Under the pieces are notes generated by a model. It worked only from the letters and a program-made list of their open reading frames with translations, had not been told where the DNA came from and searched no databases. From contig AP026132.1 of NCBI GenBank assembly GCA_030295235.1, positions 713,501 to 777,500 of the forward strand: a DNA stretch of 64,000 nucleotides, read 5' to 3'. The position numbers and the translations under genes were made by a program. The DNA comes from Fistulifera solaris (Eukaryota; Bacillariophyta; Bacillariophyceae; Naviculales; Stauroneidaceae). Below are positions 20,164-60,090 of this stretch, piece by piece. The stretch's first letter is position 1, and every line of letters begins with the position of its first letter.

Positions 20164-20676
20164 TCATTCTTCTTGTTCATCCGGTTCTTTCCCAATCAAC
20201 TTAGCTACAACCGGCGTCAAGAGAACGGTCGGTGGGAAACGAATGGGCGAAGCGGCCTTGTGGGCAGCATACGCAATCGCAAAGGTCCCCGCCGTCTCGG
20301 TGTTCTGATTCACCTCAATACCCACATTACTCAAAAGTCCGCCGACATCAACACCATTGTCGACCAAAGTATAGCAGATGGCGAACGAAATGAGAGCGAG
20401 GGGAATGGAAGTGGCCAAGTACGCAATTCCGTAGCGCTTCAATAATGACTTGGCAGTGGCGCCGCCGTCTTTCTGCTTCAAAGACTCGAGCAAACCGACT
20501 TCGAGTCCGTATTTTTCGGTCGTTTCTTCAATACTCTGCTTCGTCTCTTCTTTGGTGGGCGTAGCTCCCAGCACGGGTGTCAGTTGTCGGAGTGGATTGT
20601 GACGTGCGGGAGCCCATGCCGTAACGCTGCTCGTCCAGAGCGCCAAAAGAAGAAGAAACGAATTTCGTCCTAACAT
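20164..20676 (-). CDS. Plastid-targeted DUF1279 (FAM210-like) membrane protein
   Basis: A protein of about 170 residues from ATG 20676; the upstream open frame has no ATG. The N-terminus MLGRNSFLLLLALWTSSVTA followed by AWAP is a signal peptide plus ASAF-like transit motif, so targeting to the complex plastid is expected. After a short helix (GLEVGLLESLKQKDGG) comes the DUF1279 block: LLKRYGIAYLATSIPLALIS with one hydrophobic helix, then CYTLVDNGVDVGGLL. A second hydrophobic stretch (FPPTVLLTPVVAKLIG) lies near the end. DUF1279 proteins occur in mitochondria and plastids; their biochemical role is poorly defined. Confidence 0.75.
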   Translation of the reverse strand: MLGRNSFLLLLALWTSSVTAWAPARHNPLRQLTPVLGATPTKEETKQSIEETTEKYGLEVGLLESLKQKDGGATAKSLLKRYGIAYLATSIPLALISFAICYTLVDNGVDVGGLLSNVGIEVNQNTETAGTFAIAYAAHKAASPIRFPPTVLLTPVVAKLIGKEPDEQEE

Positions 20677-21181
20677 ATTGGATGAATCAGTATTCAATGA
20701 TGAATTCAGTAGCAAACAAATGTATGTTCTGCGAGAAAAAAGGTATCAGTTGGATGACAACAACAACAACGTCGCGGGCGATCGGTTTGCGAGAAAAAGT
20801 CGATGATGGCTCCGACTGTACGAATAATCTGTACGTGGGTGAGCCAAGAGAATGACGTGCCCCCATTCTCTTCACCGCCTGTACATGTACCGTCGTCCTT
20901 CGTATTCAACTTCAACTTCTTTACCGGGGATCGTCCACGTGGAGCTATCATGTGATCCGTGATTATTCGATTTACCGAAATATGGTTGGAAATGCGACAA
21001 TGAATCTAAGACACAACAAAGGATCTAGGGCGTGCAGTATCTAGACAACAAACCGTGTGTTAACCAGTGTTAGAAAGGGTCGATTGTAATTTTCATAGGG
21101 CGACACTTTCGTTCTTCTCCTAGAGATTACAGCGTCGTTGTTGTTCTTGATTCTAGAATTAGCCGATTAACCGAGTCATAT
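20677..21181. other. Intergenic region
   Basis: The promoter side of the DUF1279 gene and the 3' end of ispD. No gene or repeat was recognised. Confidence 0.4.
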
Positions 21182-21987
21182 CTATGCCAGCATGTTCACA
21201 GGTGCACTTTTTCTCTCTCGTAAGATAGCCTCCGCAACATCCATATCTTCGGGGGTCGTTATTTTCAGGTTCGTGTACTCCCCCAGTGTCAACTTGACAG
21301 GCTCTCCCAAGGCTTCCACAATCGATACATCATCCGTCACTTCCAAATTTTCGGCCTCCACTTTGGCGAAACCTCTCTGCAGTGTGTCAATACGAACCAC
21401 TTGTGGAGTATGGACTTCCCACAGTCGAGCCCGCGGAATGGTGCGCAATACGGTCGATCCATCTTCACTTTCCTTGATGGTTGCTTTGCAGGGAACGCCC
21501 AGAACAGCAGCTCCGTATTCCTTGGCGTCTCTCACGACATGACAAACTTCTTGGATGGTCACGAGAGGTCGTGCCGAATCATGAATGGCGGCGTATTGAC
21601 ATTGGCCCCCGACAGTTCGACCAATTTCGAGAGGCCATTTTCCACCGAACCTTGTCGTTCGACACCCGGATTGGCGAAGGCTAATTGATTCTTATAACGA
21701 TCCACAATGGGTTGATACTCGGGTTGATAAGTAGGATCCATCACCAATACAACAAACGGTGGAGGAGATTTTCCTTCTTTCTTGAGGAAGGTCGGCAGTC
21801 GCTCCAAAAATAGTTCCAACGAATGATGAAGAACGGGGACGCCTCGCAGTTCGAGAAACTGTTTGGGCATGGATGCTTTCATACGACTGCCTTTTCCTCC
21901 TGCTAATAACACAAAGCCGGTGTCGCTCATGTCAATGGCATAATCGTTGTCGCCATCGGAAAGTGCCAAAAGGATGGTCTCCGGCAA
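21182..21987 (-). CDS. ispD: 2-C-methyl-D-erythritol 4-phosphate cytidylyltransferase (IspD), one frameshift, 5' end unresolved
   Basis: The nucleotide-binding signature FVLLAGGKGSRMKASMPKQF opens the domain. HDSARPLVT (the family's HDAARP motif), TDDVSIVEALG and LKITTPEDMDVAE follow. The enzyme joins CTP and methylerythritol phosphate in the plastid MEP pathway for isoprenoids. The frame breaks around 21588-21597, just before IHDSARP, where one missing base restores the family sequence; this site is not an obvious homopolymer. The 5' end has no ATG before 21930. The same frame continues upstream past a TGA at 21997-21999 into a hydrophobic, signal-like stretch (about 22290-22340). An intron from about GTAAAA to GGAG could remove that TGA, giving a plastid presequence. 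The first exon is inferred only. Confidence 0.8.
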
Positions 21988-35495: not shown

Positions 35496-36010
35496 CTTTG
35501 ATGAGCTTACTTATTATGATTCACTCAACTACCCGCCGTCGAAACAATCGTTTCTTTGATGTCTTTCTTTTCCTTCATTCGTTTTGTGGCATTCGGCCTG
35601 CCATCCAAGCATTCGATCGCTAAGAAATTCAAATCACGCCTGTCATCCTTTTCCTACTCGACCGCGAACTGATCAACGGAAAATAGCTGGCCACGTACTA
35701 TAGTGATTGAGTATATTACTTTTTTGGGCTAGATTTGCGTTTAAACAAGTATTTCCGTTAAAGATTAGGAGGTACTTATTGTATGAGCTAAATACCAGTA
35801 TGAACTATTGTGTGTGCCACGTGGAATGTTGTTGCAATGCAAAAAGGGGGGGCGCAAAACTCGCAATCGCATTTGAGACTGCAAAAACGCACCTCTGAAA
35901 AGAAGACTTCTTAATCATCTCTTTTCTATATCCTCCCTTCTGAGCACCGGTGAATCGTTGCTCAATTAGAAAAGAATCTAGTTCAGTATTGAGGAGTTTG
36001 CATTCACAAC
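35496..36010. other. Divergent intergenic region
   Basis: Shared promoter region of the cyclophilin-like gene (minus) and the thioredoxin/thioredoxin-reductase gene (plus). No gene or repeat-family member recognised. Confidence 0.45.
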
Positions 36011-37986
36011 ATGCGGGCCCGTCTATTGTTTCTGTTTCTACTGTCATCTTTCGCATCCTTCATCGCGGCCCGACCGGTCGTCCGCAACATTCAATCCGCG
36101 CATGAATTTGACCGCTTGCTGCAAAAACACGGAACCGAAACGGGTCTTCCGGTCGTCGTGGACTTTTATTCCGATTCCTGTGGTCCGTGTCGCATGATGG
36201 CACCTATTTTCAAAAAAGTGGCCGCCGATTACGTTGATCGCGCCGTCTTTGTCAAAGTCGATACGAATGCGCAGTACGAACTGTCCGGCCGGTACCAAAT
36301 ACGTTCGCTGCCGACCTTCCAGTGGTTCATTGCCGGAAAACAAGTACAAACCGAAGTGGGTGGGATCGGTGAGCAAGGACTCCGTCATCATACCGATGGG
36401 ATTCTTCGTCGGGCGGAAATTGAGAATGTGGTCATTACATTGGAAGCACTGGAAGAATTTTATCAAAAGCGGATCCTTCGAAAACGGACGTTGCGTCGGT
36501 ATTGAAAAAATGTGCCGATATGACCAAAGCCAAAGGATTGTGTGCGGGCAGTGCGGCGAATCAATTGGCGCGGAAATTGCGCAAAAAGTACGGCAGCATG
36601 CCCAAAATGATTCCTCGATTCAGTGGCGAACCACCCAAACCAGAAACCACCGAAGAACCGCCCACTCAAAGCAGTAGTAGTTCTTCGAAACAACAAACGG
36701 CCAATTTACATTTGGCGACACTGGAAGAACTGCAAGCCGAGCTGGAAAAACGACAAGATCAATTGCGCGACGAAATGGTCGAAGCGGAGGATGCCAACGA
36801 AGATGAAGCGGATCCCGATTTCACTCCATGGACTCCCAAAAGCTATCCCGAGCGTGTCGTGATCATTGGAGGAGGACCCGCGGGTTTGGCGGCGGCCTTG
36901 TACTGTGCGCGAGCAGGGCTCGATCCGCTCGTCATTGCTCCCATTTTGGGTGGGGGTCAATTGCAAGGAAAAGGTGTCGTCGTTGAGAATTATCCTGGTT
37001 TGATCGGGGAAAGCACGACTGGACCCGAAATTGTGTCGAAAATGCGGAAACAAGCGGCGCATTTTGGTGCTTTCTTTGAGGACGATGTTGTGGTGGCGGT
37101 GGACGCGTCACAACGGCCCTTCAAAGTGCAGACGAATGCGACGGGCACCATTGAAACGCATACCATCATCGTGGCCACTGGAGCCGAATCCAATTGGTTG
37201 GGTATTCCGGGTGAATGGGAACTGCGTGGAGGAGGGGTTTCGAGTTGTGCTACGTGCGACGGCTTTTTGTACAGTAATCGCCATGTTGTCGTAGTAGGAG
37301 GAGGAGATGCCGCCATGGAAGATGCATTGGTTCTGGCGCGTACGAGCCAATCGGTCACGGTAGTGCATCGTCGCGATCGTTTCCGAGCATCCAAAGTACT
37401 GGCGGACCGTGTCCTCAGCCATCCTGCTATCACGGTGCGGTGGAATACGGTGTTACAAGAGATTGTCGGCAAAGAGCTACCAACCGAAGACAAGTCAGAC
37501 AGTGATGTAGACCTTGATCAAATTCCCAAGGTTGTGACTGGTGTTGTTCTTCAGAGTACAGAAAGTGGCGAGACGGAGGAACTTGCATGCGATGCTGTCT
37601 TTGTTGCAATCGGACATACTCCTATCACTGGTTTTCTTAAAGATGTTGTTGAATTTGATCCTGCCTATCCGGGATACTTAGCAACAGTTGGCACCAGCAC
37701 GCAAACCTCTGTCAAAGGAATATTTGCCGCTGGTGACGTTGCGGATCCGACGTACCGCCAGGCAATTACCAGTGCGGGTAGTGGAGCAGCTGCGGCACTG
37801 GATGCTGAGCGATACTTGTCGGAAAATGGTTTGGGGAACGAAGCAGCTGAGCTCGAGGCGGAGCTTTTGGCAGAATTGATGGGCAACGACGATGCCACCA
37901 AGTCAAGCTCATCTTACAACGTCTACGAAGACGCTGGTGGACGCGTACACGGAGTTAAAGAGAGCGTAACTGGGGGAGAGCTATAA
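36011..37986 (+). CDS. Secretory thioredoxin-thioredoxin reductase fusion, one frameshift
   Basis: Starts with a signal peptide (MRARLLFLFLLSSFASFIAA). Residues about 30-130 are a thioredoxin: VVVDFYSDSCGPCRMMAPIF holds the CGPC redox site, then VFVKVDTNAQYELSGRYQIR and the cis-Pro segment RSLPTFQWF. A linker with Cys residues (CADMTKAKGLCAGSAANQL) and a charged coiled coil follow. Next is a low-molecular-weight thioredoxin reductase: VVIIGGGPAGLAAALYCARA (FAD), SSCATCDGFLY (CATC redox site), VVVVGGGDAAMEDALVLAR (NADPH) and IFAAGDVADPTYRQAITSAG. It should pass electrons from NADPH through FAD and the CATC site to its own CGPC site. The frame slips in the A4 run 36465-36468; one more A joins the halves. 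Order is thioredoxin first, opposite to plant NTRC. Confidence 0.85.
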
Positions 37987-45257: not shown

Positions 45258-46429
45258 TCAATACTTTTCTTGAAAGTGTCGGACCCAGTTATCAATTGAT
45301 TTGTGCAGCGCGTTTCGCAATCCGCCACGGTAAATATTATCTTCCACGAGAGACGTTCGGGTACCCGTCGAAACCGTGAAGCCCGTAGCATCGTACGGTT
45401 CACCCACCATACAAGTGCCATCAACGTCCGGAAATTCGAGCTTGCCCCTGCAATCCATAAAGGACCAGTGTACTACGATGGACCATTCATAGATAAGTCG
45501 TTTCTTTCCACGGACGGTCGCCACACTAGCGTGTCCGGAGACAGTGGCGCTCGTGACTGTTGCCAGACCCTCCGAATGCTGAAAGGTGGTAGCTTGCAAT
45601 GATTCCCGCAACGATTCTTGGCCCCACGCCGAGACATCTTTTTCTTCCCAAGTTCCCGCTTTGTTCCACGCCGACTTTCCCGCTTCTTTGGTAGATGTAT
45701 CCTCAAAGGGTACTGTCTCTAGCTTTTGTGGAGCAATGTCACCAATCAACTTTTTGCATCTTCCGAGAGTTCATTGTGAAAGTAAGATGTCTTCTTTCCG
45801 TTGACAATTTTGTATCCTTTGACGTGATCCGATTTTGTAAAATTACCTTCTTCGTCTACGTCAACCTCCATGGGCTCCGATGTTGACGATACTGTACTGG
45901 ATGCTTTCGAAAGAGACTTGGCAGTGCTGGTTGTGGTGGTCGTCTTTGTAACGGATTTCACCGTCGTACTGACTACCTGTTGAGGTGCCTCGGACGCTTG
46001 CTTTTGAACCTTTTCCAGTTCCTTGATCAGAGCTTTGTTTGTCGGATCCAACGATAAAGCTTTTTGTAAAGTAATAACAGCATCTCCAGCTTTCCCTACC
46101 GATACTTGGGCCTGTCCTAATCGCCACCATCCTTTCACATAGGTCGCATCCAAGTCCACCGCCGACTGCGCCGAATGCAAAGCATCTTCCCATCGATTCA
46201 TCTTTCCCTGCGCTAAAGACAAATTGCTGTGTAAAATCGATTGTTGATTCGCGTCGGATGTGCATTCTAGAGCTTTCTTGTAGAGAGCAATCGCATCGGG
46301 CCAAACTTGCGCCTGAATCGCCCGTTTCGCTCGATCTTTGCATTCTTCGAGCATCCGCGTCTTGGCGGCCTCATCCTGGGGCTTGGCGTCGAGAATATCT
46401 TGATGTGCGGAAGCGAAGGGTTGATTCAT
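45258..46429 (-). CDS. TPR-Aha1 Hsp90 cochaperone, one frameshift
   Basis: Starts at ATG 46429 (MNQPFASAHQDILDAKPQDE). Three TPR units are visible in residues ~25-130: AIALYKKALECTSDANQQSI, LHSNLSLAQGKMNRWEDALH, WWRLGQAQVSVGKAGDAV. A Ser/Thr linker follows. After a slip in the T5 run 45751-45755 (one extra A on the coding strand restores the frame), the C-terminal ~160 residues match the Aha1 N-terminal domain: SAWNKAGTWEEKDVSAWGQE, LIYEWSIVVHW and MCRG-like GKLEFPDVDG. Aha1 stimulates the Hsp90 ATPase, and TPR domains bind the Hsp90 MEEVD tail. The two on one chain make a plausible single Hsp90 regulator. Upstream lies the palindrome cluster 46555-47360. Confidence 0.8.
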
Positions 46430-46554
46430 TGTCGGTAGCGCGAAAAGATAACAAGAAGGGAATAGCAAGACGTCCTTAGTATGACGACGAAAGCGAAAAA
46501 GGAAAATGGCCGGTGCTGCGATTTTTGGGCTCCACGTGTAAAAAATCATGGAGT

Positions 46555-47360
46555 GTCTTTCCAGAAATTCTGGAACGACTTCCACAGAATTTCTGTATGA
46601 TCAAAGTTCCGATGTTCCAGAATTTCTGGAACGAATACCACAGAATTTCTGTATGATCGCAAACAACGTTGGTCCAGAATTTCTGGAACGACAACCACAG
46701 AAATACTGGAGAGTGTTTTCACGTTCCGGGAAAATCTGGGAGAGCGGTGTCTACACGTGGTCCAGAAAATCTGGACCATTTGTACTTTCGCGTTCCCAGG
46801 AAATCTGGGCAAGTTGTACTTTGTCGTGGTCCAGAAAATCTGGTGCAGGTATATTTTCACCTTCCCGGAAAATCTGGGAGTGTGCTGTTTTAGCGTGGTC
46901 CAGAAAATCTGGACCAGATGTATTTTCTCTTTCCCAGGAAATCTGGGCGTATCGTTCTTTGACGCGGTCCAGAAAATCTGGACCAGGTATATTTTCACCT
47001 TCCCGGAAAATCTGGGAGTGTGCTGTTTTAACGTGGTCCAGAAAATCTGGACCAGATGTATTTTCACGTTCCCAGGAAATCTGGGGATGTCGTACTTTGT
47101 CGTGGTCCAGAAAATTTGTGCTGTTTTAAAACGTGGTCCAGAAAATCTGGACCTGGTATATTTTCACCGTCCCGGAAAATCTGGGAGTGCAGTGTTCACA
47201 CGGGGTCCAGAAAATCTGGACCAGAAGTAATTTTACGGTCCCAGGAAATCTGGGGATGTCGTACTATGACGTGGTCCAGAAATTCTGGACCAGGTGCCTT
47301 TTCACGTTACCGGAAAATCTGGGATTGCGGTTTCCCTTTGGACGACCACCGAATTTCTGT
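46555..47360. repeat. Array of about two dozen HSE-like palindromes, cluster 3
   Basis: The first ~150 bp alternate TTCCAGAAATTCTGGAACGA-type and ACAGAATTTCTGT palindromes. From about 46700 the array settles into 34-36 bp units centred on CCAGAAAATCTGG, CCCGGAAAATCTGGG or CCCAGGAAATCTGGG, separated by linkers such as TATTTTCACCTT, GTGTGCTGTTTT and GTCGTACTTTGTCG. GGTCCAGAAAATCTGGACC is a near-perfect 19-bp palindrome. The array lies between divergent genes (TPR-Aha1 minus, LRR plus). Long open frames on both strands here are by-products of the stop-poor unit and are not genes. Confidence 0.85.
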
Positions 47361-48649: not shown

Positions 48650-50116
48650 GGAAATCGAAATCCAGTCGTGGATCGGTAGAATCAACTGTATGGATCATAG
48701 TAAAAACATGAAGGTCAGGACTCGAAGACCTTGCCGGCTGAAATCGCAATTGCGCGAAGTTTCAAGGTGAGAGCATAACTAGTCTTAGATCTATTATTGT
48801 AATGAGACTATAATCAAACGCAAAAAAGACAAACAATTCGCGCTGCAGGCTGCATGTACAAAGGGATTGATGCAGTCTCATAACTGAAATCCAGTCGTGA
48901 ATTGGTGCAACCAACTGTATGGATGATAGTAAAAACTTGAAGGTCAGGACTCGGAGACCTTGCCGGCTGAAATCGCAATTGCGCGAAGTTTCAAGGTGAG
49001 AGCATAACTTGCTTTGGATCTATTATTGTAATGAGGCTATAATCAAACGCAAAAAAGACAAACAATTCGCGCTGCAGGCTGCATGTACAAAGGGATTGAT
49101 GCAGTCTCATAACTGAAATCCAGTCGTGAATTGGTGCAACCAACTGTATGGATGATAGTAAAAACTTGAAGGTCAGGACTCGGAGACCTTGCCGGCTGAA
49201 ATCGCAATTGCGCGAAGTTTCAAGGTGAGAGCATAACTTGCTTTGGATCTATTATTGTAATGAGACTATAATCAAACGCAGAAAAGACAAACAATTCGCG
49301 CTGCAGGCTGCATGTACAAAAGGATTGATGCAGTCTCATAACTGAAATCCAGTCGTGAATTGGTGCAACCAACTGTATGGATCATAGTAAAAACTTGAAG
49401 GCCAGGACTCGGAGACCTTGCCGGCTGAAATCGCAATTGCGCGAAGTTTCAAGGTGAGAGCATAACTTGCTTTGGATCTATTATTGTAATGAGACTATAA
49501 TCAAACGCAGAAAAGACAAACAATTCGCGCTGCAGGCTGCATGTACAAAGGGATTGATGCAGTCTCATAACTGAAATCCAGTCGTGAATTGGTGCAACCA
49601 ACTGTATGGATGATAGTAAAAACTTGAAGGTCAGGACTCGGAGACCTTGCCGGCTGAAATCGCAATTGCGCGAAGTTTCAAGGTGAGAGCATAACTTGCT
49701 TTGGATCTATTATTGTAATGAGACTATAATCAAACGCAAAAAGACAAACAATTCGCGCTGCAGGCTGCATGTACAAAGGGATTGATGCAGTCTCATAACT
49801 GAAATCCAGTCGTGAATTGGTGCAACCAACTGTATGGATGATAGTAAAAACTTGAAGGTCAGGACTCGGAGACCTTGCCGGCTGAAATCGCAATTGCGCG
49901 AAGTTTCAAGGTGAGAGCATAACTTGCTTTGGATCTATTATTGTAATGAGACTATAATCAAACGCAAAAAAGACAAACAATTCGCGCTGCAGGCTGCATG
50001 TACAAAAGGATTGATGCAGTCTCATAACTGAAATCCAGTCGTGAATTGGTGCAACCAACTGTATGGATCATAGTAAAAACTTGAAGGTCAGGACTCGAAG
50101 ACAATGCCGGCTAAAC
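48650..50116 (+). repeat. 229-bp satellite array, about 6.4 copies
   Basis: The word TCCAGTCG recurs at 48661, 48890, 49119, 49348, 49577, 49805 and 50034, giving spacings of 229, 229, 229, 229, 228 and 229. Neighbouring copies differ at only a few positions (for example GATGATAGT/GATCATAGT and an A-run of 5 to 6). The first unit is the most diverged. Each monomer carries the two-box core of the dispersed repeat: ACTGAAATCCAGTCGTG and, about 20 bp on, CAACTGTATGGATGATAGT. It also has CGCAATTGCGCG and GCAGGCTGCATG self-complementary words. The array ends about 100 bp before the RadA-like start. Confidence 0.95.
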
Positions 50117-55194: not shown

Positions 55195-56637
55195 CTAGGC
55201 AGTAGCAGCAACCGAAGCGCTACCATGAGCTGCTTTCATAGTGATCTCGCAACTGTTGGCGCTCTTAAACTCGGGGAAAGGCCCTTCCTGCAACGCCGCG
55301 GTGAAAGTATTCTCCCAAGCATGCAACGCCGCTCCACTGTCGCCCAAACCAAGCATCACATCGTCATCGGGAGGACACAAACGGCATCCCCATCCGCCCA
55401 TGTAGAAGTAAGCAGAGGGCTTGGGAGTCTTGAAACGGTTTTTGTTTTTGGGATGTGCTCTGGGGTCGTTCTTGTTGTAGGTCAGCATGTCTTCCGTCGA
55501 CTCAACACCGAGGGCTTCCCCCTTGCGACGCTCGACATGATCAAAATGCAAACCAGAGAGAACCGCATCGCCATTGTCCGTCTTCAAGTGAACCTGATTG
55601 TAAGCCTCCTGAAGAGCGTGGCCGGCGTAAGCGAGAGCCTTCAAACTCAAGTTCGCCTCGTCAACAGCCTTGCAGTCGAATGCCACCTCCACCGGCATGC
55701 CGTCGATGTCTTCCGTACCGTCGACCTCGGATGTGAGCAAAGCAAGATGAGCGTCCGAAGCAAGTTGAGCCACTTTGACGGATTCATCGGAAAGCATGGT
55801 AGCGGATTTCTTCGCAGCGTGCATGTTGATGTCGCATTTCTGGACGCCACTGAACTCGGGGAAGGGACTGTCTCGCAAGGCCTTCGCGTACGCATTCTCC
55901 CAAGCAGTCAACGCAACTCCACTGTCGCCCAATCCAAGCATGACATCGTCATCAGGAGGACACAAACGGCAACCCCATCCACCCATGTAGAAGTAAGCAG
56001 AGGGTTTGGGAGTCTGGAAACGACCTTTGTTTTTGGGATGTGCTCTGGGGTCGTTCTTGTTGTAGGTCAGCATGTCTTCATCCGACTCCAGCCCGAGAAT
56101 GGCTGCCTTGCGACGCTCGACGTGATCGAAGTGCAAACCAGAGAGCATCGCATCGCCACCATCCGTCTTCAAATGCACCTGGTTGTAGGCCTCTTTGAGA
56201 GCACCGGACGAGAACGCCAGCGCTTTCATGCTCAACTCACTCTCCTTGAGACCCTTGCATTCCACCTCGAGTTCGACCGGCATGTCAGCTACCGGAGCAG
56301 GAGCTCCAAGTCTCGCCGCAGGAAGATCATCCCGGAGATGAATGTTGCACGTTGGAAGGATCCCGGTACGTTGAAAGACGTCAAAGGCCACCATCCCCTG
56401 CCACGACAAGACTTGATGATACTTCAGATCATCGCACCCGACGCACTCAATCGTAACCGAATGGATCGAATCATCCGTCAACTGGACATCACCGACAACC
56501 TGGACGTCCTGAATCACATCCGAGACGACTTGGTCGAGCGAGACCGCAGCGGGAATGCCCGAACACTGGACGTTCAGCAACATCGACTCCGAAGACGCCG
56601 AGAAGAGAGAGGCAATGACTCCAGCACCGAAGAACAT
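55195..56637 (-). CDS. Secreted protein with two near-identical ~155-residue repeats
   Basis: A protein of 480 residues from ATG 56637, with a signal peptide (MFFGAGVIASLFSASSES). After a Cys-containing N-terminal region (residues ~20-105; SVTIECVGCDDL) come two copies of one domain, at about residues 115-290 and 315-480. Both contain EAYNQVHLKTD, SGLHFDHVERRK, EDMLTYNKNDPRAHPKNK, PKPSAYFYMGGWGCRLCP and PPDDDVMLGLGDSG. The core of the repeats differs at only a few residues, so the duplication or gene conversion is recent. Cysteines in CRLC and CDI/CEI suggest disulfides. I do not recognise a named family; an abundant extracellular or lumenal protein is likely from the base composition and strong codon bias. 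Confidence 0.65.
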   Translation of the reverse strand: MFFGAGVIASLFSASSESMLLNVQCSGIPAAVSLDQVVSDVIQDVQVVGDVQLTDDSIHSVTIECVGCDDLKYHQVLSWQGMVAFDVFQRTGILPTCNIHLRDDLPAARLGAPAPVADMPVELEVECKGLKESELSMKALAFSSGALKEAYNQVHLKTDGGDAMLSGLHFDHVERRKAAILGLESDEDMLTYNKNDPRAHPKNKGRFQTPKPSAYFYMGGWGCRLCPPDDDVMLGLGDSGVALTAWENAYAKALRDSPFPEFSGVQKCDINMHAAKKSATMLSDESVKVAQLASDAHLALLTSEVDGTEDIDGMPVEVAFDCKAVDEANLSLKALAYAGHALQEAYNQVHLKTDNGDAVLSGLHFDHVERRKGEALGVESTEDMLTYNKNDPRAHPKNKNRFKTPKPSAYFYMGGWGCRLCPPDDDVMLGLGDSGAALHAWENTFTAALQEGPFPEFKSANSCEITMKAAHGSASVAATA

Positions 56638-57985
56638 CGTGGAGACAGGAAAATAAGAACTTGTAAGAGAGAACTGCAACAGATCGTTTGCAATGTGCGT
56701 CAATGCGAATTTATGAGAAGGTTGATTGTCGTTTGCAAAACGTTCGATTTTGTGGTGGGAGTCCTAGATCTTGTGTGGGAGTCCTCATGGAAAGCAATCG
56801 ACGCCCGCCAAGTGGGCGCCAAAACACGCCCGCTCTAAGATCTTACCGATATTTCGATCTTCATTTAGAGAAAAGCAATCACGAGTGCTGCTTTCTGCGT
56901 GAAAGAAAATAGTACAATGAACAAGCATTCGATGCATCATGCACAACATTTCCGGAAACTCTTATTGATGCATTCCCCACATCAAAAGAAACATGAAATA
57001 CGTTTGACGTTTTTTGTCGATCGTTTATTCACGATGTGAGAATAAAAGGAAGCCACGGTCTTGCCCATTGAATGACGTTGCTTCGAAAGTGTGACGGCAT
57101 TCATTGAACATCAACGACGTTTCTCTCGGTTCAGAGAATGGCAATTGAATGAATTGTGACTACCTTAAGAGAATCAACAGATGACATCCTCCGAACCTTT
57201 GAAAGAGGGTCGATGGACTGGTACCGTAAGCAATGCTCAGTTACAAGCAACAATATTCAGAAAGAACATTCATGGGTCAAGCTGACAATCTGTCTGCGAT
57301 TGGTCTTTGTAACGAGGCCGACTCAACGTAGTTACCCCTCCATGTTCTTCCATCATTTTCATTCCCTCCAAGAGCGTCGTCGTTATCTGAGCTCATGTGA
57401 ATAAATCCTGAACGTATTGATGCCTTTTTATCAATTCCGATGACCTATCGTCGCCATGGTCGCCGCGACGTGATGCTGAGCCTTTTCTTACCCTTTTCTC
57501 GTTTTTATCGTGTTTTGCTGATTCGTTACCAGTAGGACAGTCTCATCTTAGTGCTTCATGATGTTATGTTAGGCGATCCTTTAGATGATTGAGCCGTGTA
57601 ATCAATGTCCCTCTAGATCTAATGAAAAGTAATAACGAAATATATTAGTTCATTAATTGGTATGGTTGTACAATGAACAAATAACATATTATTAGGTAGA
57701 CATAGCATTCTAACTCGAAGGGTGTTCATTCATGACTAAAACTCAGTCGTACCAAAGTGCGCATACACATTGTGGGTATAGTCGGTACCAAATGATGCTT
57801 TAGTCGCACTGGTTCGATTGCCACGTCAGCATTGGCTCCGTATGCGACGATCGATGGCAATGCGATGCGACTGCGGGGTCTTTTGCGCCGCCCCATTCCC
57901 ATTCTCGTAACGACGACAAAGCTGCTTGATGATTCTTTCAATCGTAATTACGCAATAATCTGCTCGAGCGTTCTCCCGGGTCGTC
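56638..57985. other. Intergenic region
   Basis: About 1.35 kb with a repeat copy at 57731-57785. Small frames near 57156-57404 have no coding signs. The last ~200 bp is the promoter/UTR of msrA. Confidence 0.45.
57731..57785 (+). repeat. Dispersed repeat copy
   Basis: CATGACTAAAACTCAGTCGTAC, with GACT/AGTC arms retained by a paired change (GACTG/CAGTC shortened to GACT/AGTC), then ACATTGTGGGTATAGTCGG as box 2. Confidence 0.55.
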
Positions 57986-58577
57986 ATGAAGCTTTTCGTT
58001 CCGGTCAGTCTGTTGACATTCGCGCTTACAACCAGTGCGTTTTTACAGAAACCGTCGTTCCGTGCGCTTTCCGGCAACATGGTCGATACATCCTTCGATA
58101 CTTCGTTAGACATGGTCCGCGGCGTCCCCAAATTGTGCCCGGAACTTCCGTTAACTCCTTCTATAGCTGGAAATGAAATTGCGATTATTGCCTGTGGATG
58201 ATTTTTGGGGGCCGCAGCCTGCCCTAAAGGCTGTACCCGGCGTGCAACGATGCATTGTGGGATATTCCGGAGGCTTGCAACCGGATCCGACCTATCAGAA
58301 TATTATGGATTACACCGAAGCTTTGTTGGTCGAATACGATCCTTCAATTATTACTTTTGAGGGAATTTTGAAGAAATGGAGGTCGTTCGGACAGCCGTAT
58401 CCTGCAAAAACACAGTACAAGTGGGCGGTGTTTGCTATGAACAATGAGCAAGCTCGGGTCGCGAACGAATTCTGTGCCGGCGAAAAGTACATTGCGATCG
58501 AACCTGTCACTACATTCTACATGGCAGAAGAGTATCATCAAGATTTCATGAAGAAGACGGGTAATTTAAGATATTAA
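57986..58577 (+). CDS. msrA: Plastid-targeted peptide methionine sulfoxide reductase A, probable selenoprotein
   Basis: ATG 57986 opens a signal peptide MKLFVPVSLLTFALTTSAFL with a SAF motif for complex-plastid import. The catalytic GCFWG motif of MsrA is expected after NEIAIIAC; the sequence reads ATT GCC TGT GGA TGA, with the UGA (58199-58201) exactly at the catalytic Cys position. After it comes T5 (58202-58206); with one T fewer the frame reads F-W-G-P-Q-P and on to VQRCIVGYSGGLQPDPTYQ, VEYDPSIITFEGIL and FYMAEEYHQDFMKK. So the most economical reading is Sec (U) in GUFWG plus a homopolymer over-call. An alternative is Cys (TGT) with an inserted A. MsrA reduces methionine-S-sulfoxide. The motif GHAE is replaced by MDYTEA. 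Sec-MsrA is known in Chlamydomonas. A SECIS-like hairpin lies at 58637-58696. Confidence 0.8.
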
Positions 58578-58636
58578 AGGCCGGCGCGGATGTATTGTGT
58601 CAGCATCAGCCATTCTCGCAACGTGACGTTACTTCG

Positions 58637-58696
58637 ACTGGAATGACGGATGAATTTTCAAACGCCCATGCTGCGAAAAATCGTCTTGATATCAGT
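58637..58696 (+). promoter_or_regulatory. Candidate SECIS element in the msrA 3' UTR
   Basis: 60 nt after the stop. Helix I: ACTGG with CAGT and ATC partners. Core: ATGA (58643-58646) opposite TTGA (58686-58689 area), giving tandem A.G and G.A pairs with a U.U beside them, as in the SECIS quartet. Helix II: CGGATGAATTTTC with GAAAAATCGTC, about eleven or twelve pairs with one A.A mismatch and wobbles. The apical loop starts AAAC, matching the unpaired AA of the SECIS loop. Folded by eye only. Confidence 0.55.
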
Positions 58697-58839
58697 TACC
58701 GGTAAAGTCAAGTTGTTTGAGAAAAATATTGCTTGACAATAACCCCGTGGTCGATTAAAGCATGTTGCTAAACTCGCATCACAGTTCTGACCTTAGACGG
58801 CTTGGTCCTTGTAGTTTTTACAATCACTCACTCCGAAAG

Positions 58840-60090
58840 TTAATTGTGTTCTTCAACAGTCTCATCACCTTCGGCGTCTTCTCCTTCTTCATAGTCACCG
58901 TTCGACCCCCGTTTCCTCCGCTTGAATCGACGATTTCGTGCCTTGGCGGTTTCCACACGCGAAACATTTTCCCACGGTTTAGTATGAGTCGGCCCTCTTG
59001 TTTCACTGTGTTTTTCAATCGTAACATTTCCCGTGTTGTCACGCTCTAGCAACGTTTGGGGCATGTCGGTGATTTCCAATTTCTGGGTCGTTTCCTCGAG
59101 AGTGCGTCGAATCTTGGACACATAATTGTCCACTATTATCAAGTGAGATTTCTTACTTGTAGAATCCAATTGAAGTTCTTGAAGAAAGGGTGAATCTCGT
59201 ACCAAGATAAAGAACTGAGACGAGCCCCTTCGGGCCAGTCCCAATGGTTGTGCATGACATTCAATTCGGACTCCGTGCGAAACGGTTTCATTTTGCCAAG
59301 CAAAGAAATCGACGTACATTGCATCGTCATAAATGACGGCCAAATACTTTCCTGACCCATCCCACAAAATACTAGTCGGAATGGGTCGAATGCTCTGTTC
59401 AGTTGCATTCTCGTCGTCTACTGTCGATATGGATGCCAATTCCTTGCACGTGACAAGATCCCACATCCGTATCATTCGATCTCCTCCAGTACTCGCGCAC
59501 GTATTGCCGTGCACATCAAAGGAAGACACAAAGGCCAAATGACCTAACAGATACCCATGGATGCGATAGGTATCGGGGAAATAAGAAACCCGAATCTTTT
59601 CATCCCGGTCGGCCGTCACAATGTAATTTTGATGGACCAGCACTTTCGTCAACATACTAGCTGTGTGGCCTAAGAGCAGACGACATTTTGTTTCTTGGTT
59701 CTTGTTGTCTTCTTTGCCGTCCTTTGGGTCTTCTTCGACAGAATAAGCAATCGCATCACCCGCCAAATCACTCACCACGACGACCGTCATACTCAGTTGG
59801 TCGTCACCCACCGACGCAAAACACAGCGAACTGACTCGCTTGGGAGTGGCATACGAAACCACCAAGTCCTTGTCGCGAAATATCTGCAATCGTTTGCTCG
59901 ATCGAGCCACGGCATACATCATGGGCCCGTCCGGTAGTTGGGTCAAAGCCACGGCTTGAATCATCGTCTCGTCGGCGTCCCCGAGAGGTGTCGCGGAACA
60001 TTCGTCGGCGGCGATTGCCATGACAATCGCTTGATGGCCCAACGCGACAATGATGTGCGATTCTTGAAATGTTTGAATGAGTTGTTTCAT
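58840..60090 (-). CDS. tRNA (guanine-N7)-methyltransferase non-catalytic subunit (Trm82/WDR4)
   Basis: A 416-residue single-exon protein from ATG 60090 (MKQLIQTFQESHIIVALGHQ). It has WD-repeat blades, with the family's hallmark segment: LLLGHTASMLTKVLVHQNYI, VTADRDEKIRVSYFPDTYRI and HGYLLGHLAFVSSFDVHGNT, then GGDRMIRMWDLVTCKELASI. TADRDEKIRVS is highly characteristic of Trm82/WDR4. This protein forms a heterodimer with Trm8/METTL1 that makes m7G46 in tRNA. The C-terminal ~60 residues are basic then acidic (NRRFKRRKRGSNGDYEEGED), a likely nuclear localisation signal. No frameshift. Confidence 0.9.
   Translation of the reverse strand: MKQLIQTFQESHIIVALGHQAIVMAIAADECSATPLGDADETMIQAVALTQLPDGPMMYAVARSSKRLQIFRDKDLVVSYATPKRVSSLCFASVGDDQLSMTVVVVSDLAGDAIAYSVEEDPKDGKEDNKNQETKCRLLLGHTASMLTKVLVHQNYIVTADRDEKIRVSYFPDTYRIHGYLLGHLAFVSSFDVHGNTCASTGGDRMIRMWDLVTCKELASISTVDDENATEQSIRPIPTSILWDGSGKYLAVIYDDAMYVDFFAWQNETVSHGVRIECHAQPLGLARRGSSQFFILVRDSPFLQELQLDSTSKKSHLIIVDNYVSKIRRTLEETTQKLEITDMPQTLLERDNTGNVTIEKHSETRGPTHTKPWENVSRVETAKARNRRFKRRKRGSNGDYEEGEDAEGDETVEEHN

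What the first reader, a model, noticed from the sequence alone, without database searches (positions are those of the whole stretch)
57986..58696. Plastid MsrA selenoprotein: UGA at the catalytic position and a SECIS-like hairpin in the 3' UTR
Seen: the only disruption in this MsrA gene is a UGA (58199-58201) in the exact codon where the family has its catalytic Cys (GCFWG). The downstream frame resumes F-W-G if the following T5 run is really T4, the same kind of error seen in other genes here. 60 nt after the stop there is a hairpin with an ATGA/TTGA core, about eleven or twelve pairs in helix II and an AAA-started apical loop. Known: Sec-containing MsrA exists in Chlamydomonas, and Sec machinery is present in diatoms. 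Inferred: a selenocysteine MsrA imported into the complex plastid through a SAF presequence. The combination of plastid targeting and Sec in MsrA would be notable.
Basis: partly seen in the sequence, partly recalled or inferred. Interest (0 to 1): 0.86.

Follow-up and report, generated by a model that had tools for sequence, protein, structure and literature searches.

The report
Algal selenocysteine MsrA with sequencing slip
This looks like a nuclear algal (probably diatom) gene for a selenium-containing repair enzyme, methionine sulfoxide reductase A, whose in-frame UGA codon and downstream RNA hairpin fit selenocysteine insertion; selenium versions of this enzyme are already known from diatoms, so it is a new example of a known kind, with a one-base frame break beside the key codon that is probably a sequencing error.

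Summary
The observation largely holds. The frame from 57986 stops at UGA 58199-58201, exactly where MsrA has its catalytic Cys; the rest of the enzyme follows one base out of frame, so there are two defects, not one. An edit scan places the shift at 58201-58206: removing lone A58201 (giving Cys) or one T of the T5 run with UGA=Sec yields the same best protein, so the protein alone cannot choose. Three things favour Sec. (1) A SECIS-type hairpin starts 65 nt after the stop; it is the best of 6 sites in both strands of the window under mostly published limits, and random sequence gives 1.35 as good per Mb per strand. (2) The window shares a four-residue deletion with bacterial Sec-MsrAs; 3 of 95 relatives carry TGA at this codon. 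(3) Three conserved genes here are split by one-base slips, one of them by a base too many, which I read as an extra A in an A5 run. Against: Rfam SECIS_1 scores 13.8, cutoff 35; the tree is weak. Sec-MsrA in a diatom was listed in 2007 (PMC2375036).

The parts
57986..58198 (+). 5' part of the MsrA reading frame: putative bipartite plastid presequence (MKLFVPVSLLTFALTTSA|FLQKPSFRAL...) and the start of the catalytic domain (NEIAIIACG)
   Evidence: open frame; presequence judged by eye and by residue counts only; no Pfam or NCBIfam match for this part alone
58199..58201 (+). TGA codon at the catalytic Cys position, proposed Sec codon
   Evidence: aligned with C in 92 and TGA in 3 of 95 relatives; alignments A1 and A2
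58202..58206 (+). TTTTT run, proposed true length 4; site of the one-base frame shift
   Evidence: edit scan; frame relation 'one base too many'
58203..58577 (+). 3' part of the MsrA reading frame (from the F-W-G frame) up to the TAA stop 58575-58577
   Evidence: PF01625 7.2e-22 for the frame 58173-58574 alone; 1.3e-25 with the frame restored
58636..58703 (+). SECIS-like element with lower stem, as aligned by Rfam SECIS_1 (below gathering score)
   Evidence: fold z-score -2.3, 3 of 200 shuffles as good, for 58625-58710
58643..58690 (+). SECIS core: ATGA, quartet TGAC/TGAT, 12-position helix II with one mismatch, AAA-started apical loop of 15 nt

Best explanation
A nuclear gene for a selenocysteine-containing, bacterial-type MsrA in a photosynthetic eukaryote with a complex plastid (probably a diatom). 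UGA 58199-58201 is read as Sec with the help of the eukaryotic-type SECIS at 58643-58690 in the 3' UTR, through SBP2, eEFSec and tRNA-Sec (established pathway, not tested here). The Sec selenolate then reduces methionine-S-sulfoxide, as in C. oremlandii MsrA (inferred). The extra base that breaks the frame just after the UGA is most likely an assembly or sequencing error in the T run (T5 for T4; inferred). Import into the plastid is inferred from the N-terminus only.
For: UGA exactly at the catalytic codon, and the best-scoring repair just beside it. Restored protein: PF01625 1.3e-25. The best solved-structure match by sequence, for the 3' part, is C. oremlandii Sec-MsrA, E 5.7e-17. Model core pLDDT mostly above 90, and the 45 PDB fold matches with E <= 1e-3 are MsrA chains (7c13_A by its name). 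SECIS hairpin best in the window and rare in random sequence. Rfam SECIS_1 aligned in register, E 3.4 over 4227 families, i.e. about 8e-4 for that one family in 111 nt. The four-residue deletion (12 instead of 16 residues between GYxGG and HxE) is found in 4 of the 92 relatives with the motif, namely the three TGA genes and Cys-bearing L035, and also in C. oremlandii MsrA and the window. One-base slips split other conserved genes in this window. Sec-MsrA is listed for T. pseudonana (PMC2375036).
Against: Two separate deviations are needed (UGA plus an extra T), while one inserted A explains both. Rfam gathering score not met; a wider Rfam search of 58480-58900 did not list SECIS_1 at E <= 10. 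Of the five other frame breaks, four are one base short and only one is one base too many. The window protein has Tyr where 95 of 95 relatives have His at column 109 and a very long branch. No reads, transcript, close relative or Sec machinery could be examined.
Confidence: 0.85

Rival explanations
1. Ordinary Cys-MsrA: the true sequence is TGT TTT TGG and a single inserted A made both the UGA and the frame shift; the hairpin is chance or a relic SECIS.
For: One event instead of two; removing A58201 gives the same top-scoring protein with Cys and no recoding. A SECIS behind a Cys gene is reported in that paper's section on Sec substitution (PRX of S. minutum; PMC7539508, section 10 read). L035, with the same deletion as the Sec genes, has Cys.
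Against: The inserted letter would have to be an A that makes TGA, at the one codon where TGA means Sec; a hairpin this good is expected about 0.0007 times in 500 nt. The only other one-base excess found, in carnitine acyltransferase, lies in an A run by my reading.
Confidence: 0.09
2. Decaying pseudogene or defective allele: the UGA and the frameshift are real mutations.
For: Two adjacent defects, long branch, loss of a His present in 95 of 95 relatives.
Against: No other stop or shift in the 196 codons; G71, F73, W74 and Glu111 kept; SECIS shape intact. Housekeeping genes such as TCP1 are broken in the same way in this assembly.
Confidence: 0.04
3. Programmed +1 frameshift at GGA-UGA or on the U run, with or without Sec insertion, on a correctly assembled gene.
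For: A +1 step over UGA would give G-D-F-W-G (product with Asp); the U run could slip.
Against: Asp at the catalytic position would not be expected to work as MsrA; unrelated genes nearby show the same kind of break.
Confidence: 0.02

Closest known systems
Sec-MsrA of algae (Ostreococcus, Thalassiosira pseudonana, Chlamydomonas; MSRA family of algal selenoproteomes; PMC2375036, PMC7539508)
   Same: Sec at the catalytic position of MsrA in a photosynthetic eukaryote; those genes were found through their SECIS or by homology
   Different: Their sequences were not held here, so orthology was not tested; this copy has a frame break and a possible plastid presequence
MsrA_b, 'bacterium-like MsrA selenoprotein' of Mamiellophyceae (PMC6627142, passages)
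   Same: A eukaryotic Sec-MsrA closer to bacterial ones
   Different: Reported there only from picoplanktonic Mamiellophyceae and M. viride; sequences could not be compared
Clostridium oremlandii Sec-MsrA (PDB 4lwj, 4lwk; PMC4479559, passages)
   Same: Best solved-structure match by sequence; GxFWGP motif; the same 12-residue spacing before HxE
   Different: Bacterial Sec decoding; extra C-terminal helical domain; it contains no Cys, whereas the window protein has Cys at 51, 70, 89 and 163
Rfam SECIS_1 (RF00031)
   Same: Full-length match in register, 58636-58703
   Different: 13.8 bits against a gathering score of 35

Membership tests
MsrA (PF01625) | Family profile above the curated cutoff | tested here: met
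   78.7 bits for the 3' part alone, 90.9 with frame restored, Pfam cutoff 23.7. NCBIfam cutoffs were not reached by the 3' part (TIGR00401 68.3 of 108.1); the restored protein was not run against NCBIfam
MsrA (PF01625) | G-(C/U)-F-W motif and catalytic Glu | tested here: met
   G71, F73, W74, E111 are invariant in the 18-row alignment, with UGA read as position 72
MsrA (PF01625) | His two before the catalytic Glu (HxE); common to the relatives, I do not count it as defining | tested here: not met
   Tyr in the window; His in 95 of 95 relatives
Eukaryotic selenoprotein | In-frame UGA at a redox Cys position, with the frame continuing | tested here: inconclusive
   UGA is exactly at the Cys column, but the frame continues only after a one-base correction
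Eukaryotic selenoprotein | 3' UTR SECIS: AUGA/GA quartet, 7-15 pair stem with at most 2 mismatches, A-containing apical loop of 8-20 nt | tested here: met
   Limits as printed in PMC11227280 for its type I eSECIS-like model. That the stretch is a 3' UTR is inferred from the TAA
Eukaryotic selenoprotein | Sec machinery in the organism | not testable with these tools
   No genome is held for the window; ARAGORN lists no tRNA in the window
Eukaryotic selenoprotein | Sec shown in the protein | not testable with these tools
   needs 75Se label or mass spectrometry
Rfam SECIS_1 RF00031 | Gathering score 35 bits | tested here: not met
   13.8 bits; no family reaches gathering in the whole window
Bacterial-type Sec-MsrA clade | Clade membership in a tree | tested here: inconclusive
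   93/80 in 87 rows, 60/25 in 31 chosen rows, and a rival placement is not rejected, p-AU 0.57
Bacterial-type Sec-MsrA clade | Four-residue deletion before HxE | tested here: met
   12-residue spacing in 4 of 92 relatives and in the window (YxE there); 3 of 95 rows gave no motif match
Diatom plastid-targeted protein (ASAFAP presequence) | Signal peptide, then a transit peptide starting with F/W/Y/L, positively charged | tested here: inconclusive
   F at +1 by eye; 2 K/R and 2 D/E in the first 20 residues; no SignalP or ASAFind; my crude pattern with a hydrophobicity floor did not pick it up

The most novel reading that the evidence does not exclude
The assembled sequence is correct, and one mRNA uses both Sec insertion at UGA and an immediate +1 step on the U run to make a plastid-imported Sec-MsrA, i.e. 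two recoding events on adjacent codons.
Probability: 0.02. Interest if true: 0.85.

Novelty: new member of a known kind. Interest (0 to 1): 0.32.

Why it matters
If confirmed, it adds a eukaryotic Sec-MsrA that shares a motif and a deletion with bacterial Sec-MsrAs, and that may work inside a complex plastid. That would bear on how selenium-dependent repair protects photosynthetic organelles and on whether this enzyme came from bacteria. It also shows how a UGA next to a sequencing slip can hide a selenoprotein from gene callers.

Tried and rejected
Whole-genome search for the window: no genome is held. Close relatives in viral contigs: none for the 3' part alone. The Sec-form DNA motif in viral contigs gave 30 stretches, of which 0 hold a tblastn match to the window MsrA (the 95 matches lie in the 15 loci and the 80). 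No diatom homologue could be reached, so the decisive T4/T5 question stays open. An intron around the break was considered and rejected by reasoning only: it would have to remove the GxFWG motif. The tree was rebuilt with 31 chosen rows because of long branches; support fell to 60/25, so I do not rely on it. A crude presequence scan was uninformative. My first SECIS descriptor was written after I had seen the hairpin, so I repeated the scan with stem, mismatch and loop limits from a paper; the ATGA start, quartet spacing and AA rule were still mine. With looser settings of my own (bare TGA, or 3 mismatches) further sites appear, the best of them -6.2 at 59141 on the minus strand. The edit scan tried one-base removals and insertions of two identical letters, not of two different letters. 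Structure model: the presequence is partly of low confidence. The metagenome collection was not searched: its cap is 0.

Full report
What is there. The window is eukaryotic by its genes: TCP1 chaperonin, COG5, dynamitin, cyclin, MCM-binding protein, DHHC transferase. It also holds IspD of the plastid-type isoprenoid pathway and, by eye, another leader of the plastid kind in the frame 20167-20745. I take it to be a diatom or similar stramenopile alga; that is inference, since no genome is held. The frame from ATG 57986 runs 71 codons to TGA 58199-58201. The rest of an MsrA lies one base out of frame and ends with TAA 58575-58577. The 3' part alone matches PF01625 at 7.2e-22; the 5' part alone matches nothing. 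With the frame joined at the UGA the match is 1.3e-25.

Where the break lies. I scored one-base removals, and insertions of two identical letters, along the whole gene against a profile of 17 relatives, with and without reading UGA as Sec: 1896 distinct products of 40 residues or more. The best score, 114.4, is one product reached in two ways: removing lone A58201, which makes TGT=Cys, or removing one T of the run 58202-58206 with UGA read as Sec (the listing shows the first four edits for that product). The next product scores 108.9. So the protein family fixes the place but cannot say Cys or Sec.

Is the UGA at the catalytic residue? In 95 relatives (15 viral-contig and 80 prokaryote-genome loci, one match each) the aligned residue is Cys in 92 and a stop in 3, L017, L024 and L050. 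All three stops are TGA followed by TTCTGG, inside longer open frames. I take these as bacterial Sec-MsrAs, from assemblies labelled Myxococcota, Chloroflexota and Bacillota; their own SECIS was not examined. The best solved-structure matches by sequence are chains of the natural selenoprotein MsrA of Clostridium oremlandii (PMC4479559, passages read). Window and C. oremlandii share G-x-F-W-G-P.

A shared deletion. Between GYxGG and HxE, 88 of the 92 relatives where the motif was found have 16 residues and 4 have 12: the three TGA genes and L035, a Cys-bearing Halanaerobium gene. Three of the 95 rows (L015, L034, L056) gave no motif match and were not counted; by eye they have 15 or 16. Window and C. 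oremlandii have 12. A tree of 87 rows put the window beside this clade at 93/80. A tree of 31 chosen rows gave only 60/25, and a tree holding the window with another group was not rejected (p-AU 0.57). I treat the deletion as a good lead and the tree as inconclusive. The retrieval was seeded with an alignment that held the C. oremlandii protein, which favours such relatives, and kept only the best 80 of at least 486.

The hairpin. ATGA begins after 65 nt beyond the stop. The quartet is TGAC/TGAT; helix II has 12 positions with 11 pairs, two of them G-U, and one A-A; the loop of 15 nt starts AAA and may hold a two-pair ministem. Folding gives -22.3 kcal/mol for 58625-58710, z -2.3, with 3 of 200 shuffles at least as good. 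With stem, mismatch and loop limits taken from PMC11227280 (passages read) and my own ATGA, spacing and AA demands, 6 sites exist in both strands of 64 kb, about what random sequence predicts (62 per Mb per strand). Ranked by stem energy this one is first at -7.0, the next being -1.9, and random sequence holds 1.35 per Mb per strand at that energy. My earlier descriptor, set after seeing the hairpin, found this site alone (null, where looser settings also list a -6.2 site elsewhere). Rfam SECIS_1 aligns full length at 58636-58703 with 13.8 bits, below its gathering score of 35. Its E of 3.4 counts 4227 families; for that single family in 111 nt it is about 8e-4. In a wider stretch it was not listed at E <= 10, and no Rfam family reaches gathering in the window.

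Is the frame break an error? I scanned 39 stop-to-stop frames of the window. Three genes with one Pfam family on both sides are split by one base with the profile running on: TCP1 (114 to 116), IspD (88 to 90) and carnitine acyltransferase (442 to 443). Two more, Trx/TrxR and TPR/Aha1, look split in the same way but have different families on the two sides, so they are less certain. Four of these five are one base short and one, carnitine acyltransferase, is one base too long. By my reading of the printed junctions an A run is the natural place in TCP1, Trx/TrxR, TPR/Aha1 and carnitine acyltransferase (A5); IspD is unresolved. Breaks in TCP1 and IspD are most simply sequence errors, though defective alleles or copies cannot be excluded.

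Fold and function. The model has mean pLDDT 80.7, with the catalytic core mostly above 90 and much of the presequence below 50. The 45 PDB matches with E up to 1e-3 are MsrA chains (entry 7c13 is titled for a glutaredoxin, but names its chain A MsrA). Glu111 is kept. Tyr replaces a His present in 95 of 95 relatives, which is a reservation about activity.

What is known. PMC2375036 (passages read) lists one Sec-MsrA in Thalassiosira pseudonana and in each of two Ostreococcus species, and names Chlamydomonas MsrA as a query. PMC7539508 (abstract, sections 5 and 10 and passages read) counts 20 to 44 selenoprotein genes in diatoms and names MSRA among the most widely distributed Sec proteins of algae; it is not among the four (GPX, SELENOU, SELENOT, TXNRD) found as Sec forms in more than half of 36 genomes. 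PMC6627142 (passages) describes a bacterium-like Sec-MsrA_b in Mamiellophyceae and notes that some predicted algal selenoproteins had no predicted SECIS. PMC5139114 (passages) reports MsrA protein rising under high light in T. pseudonana; in the passages seen it is not called a selenoprotein. For a plastid Sec-MsrA I searched the library with the terms and saw no title or abstract opening that states one; most listed papers were not opened.

Verdict. Most likely a real Sec-MsrA gene with a one-base slip beside the Sec codon: a new member of a known kind. Shown: UGA position, frame break, hairpin geometry, family. Inferred: Sec insertion, the T4 length, plastid import, the organism.

Noticed in passing
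window 18771, 21607-21621, around 31730: TCP1 chaperonin, IspD and carnitine acyltransferase are each split by a one-base frame shift with the Pfam profile running on, which suggests indel errors in this assembly.
   Followed up: yes
window 35993-37983: A thioredoxin domain appears to be followed by a pyridine nucleotide-disulphide oxidoreductase (thioredoxin-reductase-like) in one gene, with an apparent one-base break between the two parts.
   Followed up: partly
window 45261-46600 (-): A TPR protein appears to run into an Aha1 N-terminal domain across a one-base break at an A run.
   Followed up: partly
window 48657-50112: Tandem array of a 229-base unit, 6.4 copies, 97% matches.
   Followed up: no
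window 46559-47328: Complex tandem array built on short palindromic units of the type CCAGAAAATCTGG, with periods such as 34, 69 and 138.
   Followed up: no
L017 2001-2399, L024 2001-2390, L050 632-1072: Bacterial MsrA genes with an in-frame TGA at the catalytic codon, from assemblies labelled Myxococcota, Chloroflexota and Bacillota; probable bacterial selenoproteins.
   Followed up: partly
window 55198-56763 (-): Long reading frame with two similar copies of a stretch containing YFYMGGWGCRLCPPDDDVMLGLGDSG and no Pfam match at E <= 0.001.
   Followed up: no
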